Positions 43,158-51,952 of a stretch of 64,000 nucleotides of DNA are shown in pieces. The stretch covers positions 1 to 64,000 of the forward strand of contig JBCCEW010000023.1 in assembly GCA_039030075.1 (NCBI GenBank). The letters run 5' to 3'. The number at the start of each line of letters is the position of its first letter. Position 1 is the first letter of the stretch. A program made the position numbers and the translations under genes. The notes under the pieces were generated by a model. It was not told the origin of the DNA and searched no databases. It was given only the letters and a program-made list of their open reading frames with translations. This stretch comes from Myxococcota bacterium (GTDB taxonomy: Bacteria > Myxococcota_A > UBA9160 > SMWR01).

Positions 43158-44363
43158 CTAGCAGCAGCTCTCGGAGCCTGCGTCCGGAGCGCAGCAATCC
43201 GACTCCTCGGTGGTCGCCGAGTAGTCCAGCCCCTTCGTCTCGCGCGGGTGTCGGGCGACCGTGCGCGAGCAGTCGAACTCCGCGCGCTCGGCTTCCGGGA
43301 TCGGCGTGTACGGCTCGACCGGAATCAGCTGGTCGCCGGTCGGGCCCTTCGTGAGCAGGTCGAAGGTCTTCGCGCACACCGCGACGCGCTCACCGCGGCG
43401 CAGGACGTGCCCATCGTCGTCTTCGACCTGGCGCCAGGGCCCGCGGTAGATCACCGCCTGGTTGGCCTCGTAGCAGGGGCCTTCCTTGCCCTTCTCCGCG
43501 GTGATGGTGACCGACCGGAAGACGATCCCGTCGACGACGCGGAAGGGTTCATCGCTCCAGGCGTCGATTGCGATGGCGTGGAAGCCCGCGTCCTCGAGCG
43601 CCTGCAGGAGCTCCTGCTCGTGGAACGCGCCGGAGATGCAGCCGCTCCAGAGCTCGGGGTCGTTGCGCAGCTCCTCGGGCACGACCTCGTCGGAGACGAT
43701 GTCCGAGATCGCGATGCGACCTCCGCGGCGCAGCACGCGGTAGATCTCGCGGATCAGCTGGGTCTTGTCCTCCTGCCGGACGAGGTTCAGCACGCAGTTG
43801 GAGACGACGAGGTCCACGCTGTCGTCGGCGACCAGCGGCTGTTCGCGACGCAGGCGGTCCGACTCGAGGTCGAGGGCCTCGATGTCGCTGCTGTGTTTCA
43901 CCGGGTGGGCGGCCAGCCAGTCGTCGAGCGCGTCGACGGGGAGGGCGAGGTCCTGGATGCGACCGCGCAGGAACTCCACGTTCGAGAAGCCCGTGCGCTC
44001 GGCCACGACCGGCGCCGAGCGCCGCGCCAGGTCGAGCATGTCGTCGTTCATGTCGACGCCGAGGATCCGGCCGTCCTTGCCGGCGATCTGGGAGGCGATG
44101 AAGCAGATCTTCCCGCCGCCGCTGCCCAGGTCGAGCACCGTGTCGCCTGGGCGCACGTAGCGCGACGGATCGCCGCAGCCGTAGTCGCGGTCGATCACTT
44201 CCTCGGGGATCACCTCGAGGTACTTCGGGTCGTAGTCGATGGGGCAGCAGAGAGCGGCCTCCTGCTCCTGGGCGGCGGCGCCGTAGCGCTCGCGCACGGC
44301 CTCTTCGACGTTCAGCGCGACGTTCAGAGTTTCGACCTTCGACGGGGTCGAGGCATCGGACAT
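43158..44363 (-). CDS. arsM: ArsM-like arsenite methyltransferase with long C-terminal domain
   Basis: SAM methyltransferase of 401 residues. It starts RERYGAAAQEQEAALCCPID and DYGCGDPSRYV, the arsenosugar-type ArsM beginning; motif I is VLDLGSGGGKICFIA at 76-90. Cys63, Cys190 (VSNCVLNL) and Cys242 fall where ArsM binds As(III). After the ~270-residue core comes a C-terminal domain of about 130 residues ending SCC, with another Cys pair (DCCAPD). CAGGAGA precedes the ATG. It should methylate arsenic, or start arsenosugar synthesis, in the cytoplasm. No ArsR or ArsB lies nearby. Confidence 0.82.
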   Translation of the reverse strand: MSDASTPSKVETLNVALNVEEAVRERYGAAAQEQEAALCCPIDYDPKYLEVIPEEVIDRDYGCGDPSRYVRPGDTVLDLGSGGGKICFIASQIAGKDGRILGVDMNDDMLDLARRSAPVVAERTGFSNVEFLRGRIQDLALPVDALDDWLAAHPVKHSSDIEALDLESDRLRREQPLVADDSVDLVVSNCVLNLVRQEDKTQLIREIYRVLRRGGRIAISDIVSDEVVPEELRNDPELWSGCISGAFHEQELLQALEDAGFHAIAIDAWSDEPFRVVDGIVFRSVTITAEKGKEGPCYEANQAVIYRGPWRQVEDDDGHVLRRGERVAVCAKTFDLLTKGPTGDQLIPVEPYTPIPEAERAEFDCSRTVARHPRETKGLDYSATTEESDCCAPDAGSESCC

Positions 44364-49320: not shown

Positions 49321-49803
49321 ATGCCCATCGAAGTCGGTGCGAAGGTTCCGGACGTGAAGATCAAGACCATGGCCGATGGCGGCATGCAGGACGTCTCGAC
49401 GGCCGAGCTCTTCGCCGGGAAGAAGGCCGTGCTCTTCGCGGTGCCCGGCGCGTTCACGCCCACCTGCTCCATGCAGCACCTGCCCGGGTTCATCGAGAAG
49501 GCCGGGGAGATCAAGGCGAAGGGCGTCGACCTGATCGCGTGCGTGTCGGTGAACGACGCCTTCGTGATGGACAGCTGGGGCAAGGACAAGGGCGCGGGCG
49601 AATCCGTGATGATGCTGGCCGACGGCAACGGCGACTTCGCGAAGGCGATGGGCCTCGACTTCGACGGCTCGGGGATCGGCTTCGGTCTGCGCTCCCAGCG
49701 CTACGCCGCGATCATCGAGGACGGAGTCGTCTCGGCGCTCCACGTCGAAGCGCCGATGAAGTTCGAGGTGAGCAGCGCCGACGCGATCCTGGCCGCGCTC
49801 TAG
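49321..49803 (+). CDS. Peroxiredoxin, Prx5 type
   Basis: Peroxiredoxin of 160 residues, typical of the Prx5/AhpE-like group. The peroxidatic Cys49 is in PGAFTPTCSMQHLPGF, the standard Prx5 active-site loop. The catalytic Arg is in FGLRSQRYAAII. It reduces peroxides using thiols from glutathione or thioredoxin in the cytoplasm. AGGAGAGG lies upstream of ATG at 49321. It is the last gene of the MoxR/VWA group in the same direction, 41 bases away. Confidence 0.95.
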   Translation: MPIEVGAKVPDVKIKTMADGGMQDVSTAELFAGKKAVLFAVPGAFTPTCSMQHLPGFIEKAGEIKAKGVDLIACVSVNDAFVMDSWGKDKGAGESVMMLADGNGDFAKAMGLDFDGSGIGFGLRSQRYAAIIEDGVVSALHVEAPMKFEVSSADAILAAL

Positions 49804-49815
49804 CGCGCGACCGCG

Positions 49816-50628
49816 CTAGGTGCGCACCCGCCGGGGGTAGCCCTCGGTCGGGCGCGCCCCGTTCTCGTCGCGAACGTCGAACTCCTCGGCCACGTCTTCG
49901 ACCCACTGGATCGTCCCGGTGCGTTCCATCAGGTCGTCGCTCGCGAGCAAGGCGTTCACGCAGCGTCCCACCAGGAGCGGACTCTGGGCCTGGGAGAGGT
50001 CCATCCCGGTGTGCTTCGCGGTGTCGACGATGAACTCGGTCGAGACGACGCCCGGATAGATCACGACAGCGGGCACGCCCTTGGGCTGGAGCTCCTGCGC
50101 CATGTCCTTCGTCAGCCGATCGAGGCCCGCCTTCCCCGCGCCGTAGGACGCGCTGAAGTGGTAGCTCTCGCCGCCGGGAGAGGAGATGTTGAAGACGGCG
50201 GCGCGCTCGGAGGCGAACAGCAGGGGGGCCGCGTGCCAGCTGGCGACGTAGTGGGCGCGCAGTCCGATGCCCACCTGATCGTCCCAGATCTCGACCGGGT
50301 GCTCCCAGAAGCCGCCTCCCCAGGCCGGCTTGTCGGGAACCTTGTAGACGTTGTTGACGAGCACGTCGAGCCGACCCGCTTCGTCCTTCACACGTGCGAA
50401 GAGCGCGGTGATGTCGGCGTCGTTGCCGTGATCGCAGCGAACGGCGCGACCCTCGCCGCCCCGCTGAGTGACTTCCTTGGCGGCGGCGTCGATGGAGCGG
50501 TCGCCGTCGACCGTGCGGCCGCTCACGTAGACCGTGGCGCCCTGTTCACCCAGGGCCATCGCCACCCCGCGGCCGATGCCGCGCGTGGCGCCGGTGACGA
50601 CGGCGATGCGTCCGGACAGAGTGCTCAT
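49816..50628 (-). CDS. Short-chain dehydrogenase/reductase
   Basis: NAD(P)-dependent SDR of 270 residues. The dinucleotide motif is TGATRGIGRG at 12-21, the NNVYK element is present, and the active-site Tyr-Lys is in SYGAGKAGLDRL, with the preceding Ser in FNISSPGG. ATG at 50628 is preferred to a GTG 21 bases upstream because it fits the family start. It ends the gene group following the selenoprotein gene, 38 bases away, on the same strand, so it may be part of the same pathway. Substrate unknown. Confidence 0.88.
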   Translation of the reverse strand: MSTLSGRIAVVTGATRGIGRGVAMALGEQGATVYVSGRTVDGDRSIDAAAKEVTQRGGEGRAVRCDHGNDADITALFARVKDEAGRLDVLVNNVYKVPDKPAWGGGFWEHPVEIWDDQVGIGLRAHYVASWHAAPLLFASERAAVFNISSPGGESYHFSASYGAGKAGLDRLTKDMAQELQPKGVPAVVIYPGVVSTEFIVDTAKHTGMDLSQAQSPLLVGRCVNALLASDDLMERTGTIQWVEDVAEEFDVRDENGARPTEGYPRRVRT

Positions 50629-50666
50629 CGAACCTCGCTCGCGAGTCACGCTTCCGGCCTTCGCGC

Positions 50667-51833
50667 CTAGAAGAGCGACTCCTCGGTTTGGGACGCCGGG
50701 ATGACGTAGTAGAGGCCGGGGAAAGCGGGTTCGGCCTCCTTCACTGCAGCGTAGTAGCGACGCACGAGATCGCCCATCGCTGTCTTCTGGTAGTACCAGG
50801 TCTCGCTCGCGCGGGCGGCCGGGACGTGGTCCGACAAGCCGAGTGCCGCCTCTTCGTAGTAGGCCCGGATGTCCATCAGGAGCGTGGTGGCGTTGCCGCC
50901 GGCGTAGTCGACCTCGTTCCAGGCAGCACCTTCGGCCACCTCGACGAACGCTCGGATCGCCTCGGGGATCGCGTCGGCGTCGACGACCCGCCCGACCTGA
51001 CTGTGCCCGATGCGCGCGACTCCGCGGTCATAGGCGCCGCGCAGGCCGCGGGCCTCGCCCACCGGTGCGGGCTCGTGCGCGTCCAGGCGCGGCGGGATCG
51101 GGCAGACGAGGGGTGCGTCGACCTCGTCTTCGATCACCGTGTCGAAGCCCTCGATCGTCGCGGTGCGGCGCGGGAGCAGCCCGAAGGCTGCGTCGAGCAC
51201 GCGACGCTGGAACGCCGCGTCGAGCGGGTGCCCCAGCGGGCGTCCGAGCGGGAACTCGCAGTAGAGACCGCGGGGCGGTCCGATGCGCTCGGCCGCCGCG
51301 CGGTTCGCGAGCAGGGATACGGTGGCGAGGCCCGACGCTTCGAGCGCCCGCGCGAGCGTACTCACGGTACGCGTGCACATCGGTCAGACGGGGGTCAGCA
51401 GGGCGACGTCGACACCGTCGCCGCGCAGCTCGGCGGCGAGGCGCGGCCCCGTGTCGAGCAGGAAGGTCTGCAGCTCGAAGGTCGAACCCTGAAACGAGGC
51501 ATGGCGCGGGGCGACGCGACCGAGCACGCCTTCCCGCTCCATTTCGGCCAGGCGGTCGATCGGGAACACCACGTTGCGGTCGAGGGCGAAGCCCGAGCGA
51601 TCCAGGTTGGTGCTGTTGTGCGCCATGATCAGACCCGACGCGTCCCGGTCGAAGAGGCGGTACTCGTGGGTCTGGTCGGCCCAGGGCTCGCCGGGGTGCG
51701 CGAGTGCGGCGGTGGTCACGACCGCGACCGTGGCCTCGCCGAGGGCCGGTGCGGAGACCAGCTCCACCGGCGGGAACTCGATCCCGGGCGGAATGCGGCC
51801 CATCGCCTCGCGCATCGCATCATCGGCGCCCAT
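50667..51833 (-). CDS. Selenoprotein of the glycine/sarcosine/betaine reductase B family (in-frame TGA)
   Basis: One gene of 388 codons containing a single in-frame TGA (51384-51386). Without recoding it would give 149- and ~237-residue fragments. Around the TGA the frame reads ALLTPV-U-PMCTRTVSTLAR, so Sec150 and Cys153 form a UxxC redox motif just where this family has TPVUPxC or TPVCPxC. Flanking sequence continues without a break (EFPPVELVSAPALGEATVAV before, LARALEASGLATVSLLANRA after). The ATG at 51833 has GGGAGGAG. A SECIS-like hairpin follows the TGA. This family reduces C-N or related bonds or handles peroxides; the reaction here is unknown. No Sec machinery genes are in the window. 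Confidence 0.85.
51351..51377 (-). promoter_or_regulatory. SECIS-like hairpin downstream of the Sec codon
   Basis: Reading the mRNA, a 6-bp perfect stem (GCGUAC/GUACGC) with loop CGUGA starts 12 nt after the UGA. Below it, a 2x2 internal loop and three further pairs extend it. The apical loop begins 17 nt after the UGA and has a G as its second base. Bacterial SECIS consensus asks for a G in the first two loop bases and a 16-37 nt spacing, so all visible rules are met. Coding sequence also constrains this stretch. Confidence 0.6.
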
Positions 51834-51952
51834 CGCGCTCCTCCCGTTCGAGGCGGGCAGCATACGCGATCGCAGCGGCGGGCCGGTGGATCCAAAGCGC
51901 GCGTGTTCGGCGGGTCCATCGAGTATGCTGTGCGCGTAAAATGGAGGACAGC

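What the first reader, a model, noticed from the sequence alone, without database searches (positions are those of the whole stretch)
50667..51833. Hidden selenoprotein: in-frame TGA in a UxxC motif of a GrdB-family gene
Seen directly: two minus-strand frames, the second beginning only two codons after the TGA that ends the first, are in the same frame. The junction reads TPV-TGA-PMCTRTVSTLAR, and the first frame has a strong ribosome-binding site. Known: the stand-alone selenoprotein B-like family (glycine/betaine/sarcosine reductase superfamily) carries TPVUPxC or TPVCPxC at this point. Inference: the TGA is selenocysteine 150. Standard annotation would split this into two unknown proteins, the second from a false ATG.
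Basis: partly seen in the sequence, partly recalled or inferred. Interest (0 to 1): 0.92.

Follow-up and report, generated by a model that had tools for sequence, protein, structure and literature searches.

The report
PrdB/GrdB-like selenoprotein with helical extension
A stop codon in the middle of this bacterial gene is read as the rare amino acid selenocysteine, giving one 388-residue enzyme-like protein of a known marine and soil selenoprotein kind (related to proline and glycine reductase) with an extra conserved domain and an unknown substrate.

Summary
The finding holds. On the minus strand one frame runs from ATG 51833 to stop 50669-50667, interrupted only by TGA 51386-51384 (codon 150; TPV-U-PMC). 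The genome carries SelA, SelB, SelD and a tRNA-Sec with anticodon TCA. Over 100 homologue stretches in related genomes keep a TGA at this place. dN/dS is as low after the TGA as before it. A hairpin just after the TGA, as in a bacterial SECIS, is conserved by compensatory changes and exceeds what synonymous codon choice gives. Two alphaproteobacterial homologues have Cys at this site, and the TGA of clostridial PrdB aligns to it. AlphaFold2 models the read-through protein as one confident structure (pLDDT 89). The protein is PrdB/GrdB-like but scores below the PrdB, GrdB and Pfam GRDB cut-offs; the genome has no detectable pyruvoyl partner (PrdA/GrdE) and no GrdA. It belongs to a well-supported long-form clade with a helical C-terminal extension and an extra invariant Cys. 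Stand-alone Sec PrdB-like proteins were already abundant in Sargasso Sea and GOS data, so this is a variant of a known kind. The reaction is inferred (Sec attack on carbon, release by Cys153); the substrate is unknown.

The parts
50667..51833 (-). Selenoprotein gene: 388 codons plus stop, ATG at 51833, TAG at 50669-50667; PrdB/GrdB-like long form
51384..51386 (-). In-frame TGA read as selenocysteine (residue 150), first residue of the UPMC (UxxC) motif
   Evidence: TGA inside nearly all homologue stretches, in the PVUP/PAUP context in the 33 loci read; TGC in Roseomonas and Haematobacter homologues
51356..51372 (-). Bacterial SECIS-like hairpin GCGUAC-CGUGA-GUACGC: six base pairs, five-base loop; apical loop starts 18 nt after the TGA
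51838..51845 (-). Ribosome-binding site GGGAGGAG upstream of ATG 51833
   Evidence: sequence
50670..51100 (-). C-terminal extension, largely helical, absent from PrdB and short paralogues; begins at about the invariant Cys244 (Cys254 in the numbering of P0002) and holds a D-x-x-x-x-Y-x-E motif
49819..50649 (-). Short-chain dehydrogenase just downstream on the same strand; possible co-transcription, not conserved as a neighbour in relatives

Best explanation
The gene encodes a stand-alone selenoprotein of the PrdB/GrdB superfamily. The ribosome reads the UGA as selenocysteine with SelB, tRNA-Sec and the hairpin just downstream of the codon. Well supported by sequence evidence: the decoding, the UxxC motif between a beta-strand and a helix, and the single predicted fold spanning the UGA. 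Inferred: the Sec selenolate attacks an activated carbon (or another electrophile) of a small substrate, as proposed for D-proline and glycine reductases; Cys153 (or the long-form Cys244) then frees the selenium as a selenenyl-sulfide, which cellular thiols or thioredoxin reduce. The substrate is unknown. The usual pyruvoyl-bearing partner was not found, so the C-terminal extension may supply substrate binding. My confidence is about 0.97 for the selenoprotein and about 0.4 for reductive cleavage chemistry.
For: Sec machinery in the same genome: tRNA-Sec, SelB, SelA, SelD, all above cut-off. Homologues in 44 of 61 relatives, 65 of 91 genomes of the class and 54 of 284 sampled from the phylum; almost every stretch spanning the site has a TGA, in PVUPxC or PAUPLD context in the 33 loci read. 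dN/dS 0.13-0.16 downstream of the TGA versus 0.10-0.16 upstream between the window gene and its three closest orthologues. SECIS stem 98.7% paired, four of six pairs changed on both sides, 0/500 shuffles reach the covariation score; full stem in 29 of 31 sequences versus about 2 expected (maximum 8) under synonymous recoding. Cys (TGC) homologues and the TGA of Peptoclostridium PrdB align to the site. All 31 aligned members match Pfam GRDB at E<=0.01. AlphaFold2 pLDDT 89.3, pTM 0.89 across the TGA. UxxC PrdB-type selenoproteins are known from the Sargasso Sea and GOS (PMC1088965, PMC2398784). The Sec-carbon mechanism of the relatives is reviewed in PMC10298544.
Against: No direct protein evidence. 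Folding the window's 50 nt from the TGA alone favours a different, larger pairing (z = 0.18), and Rfam finds no SECIS, so the hairpin rests on comparison. The protein fails the PrdB, GrdB and Pfam cut-offs, and no solved structure resembles it, so the chemistry is extrapolated from distant relatives. Neighbouring genes are not conserved and give no substrate hint.
Confidence: 0.9

Rival explanations
1. Same selenoprotein, but a redox enzyme: Sec150 and Cys153 act like a thioredoxin-type UxxC pair, reducing peroxides, disulfides or other oxidised thiols.
For: UxxC motif at a strand-helix junction; a peroxiredoxin gene lies nearby at 49321-49803, though not shown to be linked.
Against: The sequence kin with known function break C-N bonds rather than handle disulfides; the fold search found no thioredoxin-like match among the hits shown; some paralogues keep Sec but have UPLD, without the second Cys.
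Confidence: 0.3
2. Two separate proteins: the TGA is a true stop, and the second begins at ATG 51380 or another internal start.
For: The standard code gives a 159-codon ORF (ATG 51863; 149 codons from ATG 51833) and a 237-codon ORF.
Against: TGA kept in over 100 homologue stretches; Cys codon in Roseomonas and Haematobacter within one continuous gene; one fold across the site; SECIS covariation.
Confidence: 0.02
3. Pseudogene or sequencing error at the TGA.
For: None beyond the stop itself.
Against: TGA present in separately assembled genomes whose proteins are 46-81% identical to this one; low dN/dS on both sides.
Confidence: 0.01
4. It is a genuine D-proline or glycine-type reductase subunit working with a pyruvoyl partner encoded elsewhere.
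For: Best NCBIfam match is PrdB, 94.6 bits.
Against: Cut-off 300 not reached; no PF09338 partner (PrdA/GrdE family) and no GrdA in the 95% complete genome while the positive control record rings for both; no PrdC above cut-off.
Confidence: 0.04

Closest known systems
D-proline reductase subunit PrdB (TIGR04483)
   Same: Homologous over residues 38-226 (P0002 numbering); UxxC site with TGA aligns
   Different: 94.6 bits against cut-off 300; about 160 extra C-terminal residues; no PrdA-family partner, and no PrdC above cut-off; VUPxC context instead of GUGTC
Glycine/sarcosine/betaine reductase selenoprotein B (GrdB/F/H; PF07355, TIGR01918)
   Same: Homologous around the Sec site; UxxC
   Different: Lacks the GrdB N-terminal part; below every cut-off; no GrdA or GrdE family match in the genome
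Sec-containing PrdB-type proteins of Sargasso Sea and GOS metagenomes (PMC1088965, PMC2398784)
   Same: Abundant UxxC selenoproteins named PrdB, mostly Sec; very probably the same kind
   Different: Published sets were not compared sequence by sequence; no long form is mentioned in the passages read
RefSeq 'glycine/sarcosine/betaine reductase selenoprotein B family protein' of Alphaproteobacteria (WP_207415257, WP_035710215)
   Same: Single continuous gene, not next to other reductase subunits in the stretch seen; site aligned
   Different: Cys instead of Sec, about 300 residues, no long-form C-terminal region

Membership tests
Bacterial selenoproteins (UGA decoded as Sec) | In-frame UGA with conserved coding sequence on both sides | tested here: met
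Bacterial selenoproteins (UGA decoded as Sec) | SelA, SelB, SelD and tRNA-Sec in the genome | tested here: met
Bacterial selenoproteins (UGA decoded as Sec) | bSECIS hairpin just downstream of the UGA with a G early in the apical loop | tested here: met
   loop CGUGA; by comparison only, no Rfam hit and not the preferred fold of the window sequence alone
Bacterial selenoproteins (UGA decoded as Sec) | Cys homologues at the Sec position | tested here: met
Bacterial selenoproteins (UGA decoded as Sec) | Selenium in the protein | not testable with these tools
   needs mass spectrometry or 75Se labelling
PrdB of D-proline reductase | Score above TIGR04483 cut-off | tested here: not met
   94.6 versus 300 bits
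PrdB of D-proline reductase | Pyruvoyl partner PrdA (PF09338 family) in the genome | tested here: not met
   positive control rings
PrdB of D-proline reductase | PrdC electron carrier | tested here: inconclusive
   no match above cut-off in G000, but the PrdB-bearing control record has none either
GrdB of glycine reductase | Score above TIGR01917/TIGR01918/PF07355 cut-offs | tested here: not met
GrdB of glycine reductase | GrdA and GrdE in the genome | tested here: not met
   with positive control
PrdB/GrdB superfamily (broad) | Significant homology around the UxxC/CxxC site | tested here: met

The most novel reading that the evidence does not exclude
The long form is a self-contained selenium-dependent reductase that breaks a C-N, C-halogen or C-S bond without a pyruvoyl partner, using its C-terminal helical region (invariant Cys244, DxxxxYxE) for substrate binding: a new single-protein enzyme in uncultured Myxococcota.
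Probability: 0.25. Interest if true: 0.7.

Novelty: new variant of a known kind. Interest (0 to 1): 0.42.

Why it matters
Standard gene calling would cut this protein and its relatives into two unknown pieces. Joined correctly, they show that many genomes of one Myxococcota class carry one to several PrdB-like selenoproteins, almost always with Sec rather than Cys, and (tested in the window's genome) without the partners that known PrdB/GrdB enzymes need. What these widespread selenoproteins do is open; the long form, predicted with high confidence, is a testable single-protein case.

Tried and rejected
Rfam scan for a SECIS: no hit at gathering or permissive thresholds. Single-sequence folding of the 50 nt: not better than shuffles and a different pairing preferred. 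PDB sequence and fold searches and the viral fold search: no credible match; the fold hits shown have TM-scores of 0.38 or less. A first AlphaFold2 run on six sequences was weak (pLDDT 64.6); with 31 sequences it rose to 89.3 (67). Gene neighbourhood across 17 loci: no conserved partner; an MFS transporter follows the gene in two orthologues only. Papers on Myxococcota selenoproteins or a PrdB structure: none held that contain the terms searched. The two-protein and pseudogene readings were rejected on conservation.

Full report
Observation. On the minus strand, translation with TGA=U gives a single frame from ATG 51833 (a Met aligns at this site in all six sequences of the closest-homologue alignment; GGGAGGAG precedes it) to TAG 50669-50667: 388 codons, TGA at codon 150 (51386-51384), context LLTPV-U-PMC. 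Some outputs use an upstream ATG at 51863, which adds ten residues (P0002, Sec160). Because the DNA is GC-rich, with long antisense ORFs over the same stretch, open frames alone prove little; the argument rests on comparison.

Machinery. The window lies in a 5.76 Mb, 95% complete genome (G000). It has a tRNA-Sec above the Rfam score that ARAGORN also calls with anticodon TCA, SelB at 322.6 bits, SelA at 517 and SelD at 271, all above cut-off. The nearest records are titled Deltaproteobacteria or Myxococcota MAGs, and the tree module assigns two of them to Myxococcota.

Conservation. Searching relatives with the joined protein found homologues in 44 of 61 genomes; profile searches found them in 65 of 91 genomes of the class and 54 of 284 sampled from the phylum. 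Nearly every stretch that spans the site carries a TGA inside, and in the 33 loci read the TGA sits in a PVUP or PAUP context. Between the window gene and its three closest orthologues, dN/dS is 0.13-0.16 after the TGA and 0.10-0.16 before it. In two alphaproteobacterial plasmid genes the codon is TGC inside one continuous annotated gene, and in Peptoclostridium acidaminophilum PrdB it is TGA.

SECIS. Eleven nucleotides after the TGA begins GCGUAC-CGUGA-GUACGC (51372-51356), with the apical loop starting 18 nt after the TGA; from general knowledge this suits a bacterial SECIS. Across 26 distinct homologues the six pairs form in 98.7% of cells, four pairs have changes on both sides, the covariation score of 0.709 is reached in none of 500 shuffles, and slid controls fall to 9-41% pairing. 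Since the region is coding, I also recoded each sequence at random with synonymous codons: 29 of 31 real sequences have the full stem, against a mean of 2.0 and a maximum of 8 in 2000 trials; for the window sequence the chance is 0.0025. Folding the window segment alone does not prefer this hairpin and Rfam gives no hit, so the support is comparative.

Family. Pfam GRDB matches just below cut-off (20.2 vs 22 bits) and PrdB at 94.6 bits vs 300. All 31 members of a family alignment match GRDB at E<=0.01. The genome has no PF09338 partner and no GrdA, while the clostridial control record rings for both. PrdC gives only sub-threshold matches, and the control record has none above cut-off either, so that test is inconclusive. 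It is therefore a stand-alone superfamily member, neither PrdB nor GrdB proper.

Long form. The window protein and 15 relatives form one group in the tree (support 98/97), and those read to the end have a C-terminal extension that PrdB and the short paralogues lack. In the 14 long forms with enough of the extension, the Sec, Cys153 and Cys244 are invariant, as are Asp, Tyr and Glu of a DxxxxYxE motif and a Thr (there in P0002 numbering). AlphaFold2 on 31 sequences gives pLDDT 89.3 and pTM 0.89: an alpha/beta core with the Sec between a strand and a helix, followed by helices. No solved structure matches convincingly.

Mechanism. Supported by sequence: decoding signals, single fold, UxxC. Inferred: nucleophilic Sec, resolution by Cys153 or Cys244, reduction by thiols. 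In D-proline and glycine reductase the Sec is proposed to attack a carbon of a carbonyl-bound substrate and a Se-C bond is then cleaved (PMC10298544); a GrdB-like/GrdE-like pair is implicated in fluoroacetate reduction (PMC10838667). Without a partner, the extension may do the binding; that is a hypothesis.

Known or new. PrdB was already the third most abundant known selenoprotein family in the Sargasso Sea (42 Sec, 1 Cys; PMC1088965) and had 235 Sec and 110 Cys sequences in GOS (PMC2398784); reviews list UxxC PrdB/GrdB. The kind is therefore known. I found no description of the C-terminally extended clade in what I read, but I did not compare the deposited sequences.

Noticed in passing
L043, L045, L046, L047: Short paralogues keep the Sec in PAUPLDHQTVGL but have Asp where the second Cys of UxxC should be, so the Sec there has no resolving Cys in the motif.
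   Followed up: partly
G064 and other genomes: Up to seven PrdB-like matches per genome, in several subfamilies and nearly all with an internal TGA, while the window's genome has one.
   Followed up: partly
window 43158-44363: ArsM-like methyltransferase with a Cys-rich C-terminus (ESDCCAPDAGSESCC); best NCBIfam match is arsinothricin ArsM at 352 bits, below its cut-off of 500. Several related NCBIfam models are selenoproteins; this one has Cys only.
   Followed up: partly
window 49321-49803: Peroxiredoxin-like gene (Cys form) on the plus strand, about 0.9 kb beyond the selenoprotein's end.
   Followed up: partly
Pfam PF07355 versus P0002 41-157: The GRDB profile (347 positions) ends just before the Sec site, as if built from sequences cut at the TGA, which may explain the sub-threshold score.
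   Followed up: no
L101: In Roseomonas the Cys homologue lies next to a SelO gene.
   Followed up: no
G085:C43, G085:C26, G003:C72: PrdC-like matches of 183-188 bits, below cut-off, in two relatives that carry the long form; the window's genome has only a 36.7-bit match.
   Followed up: no
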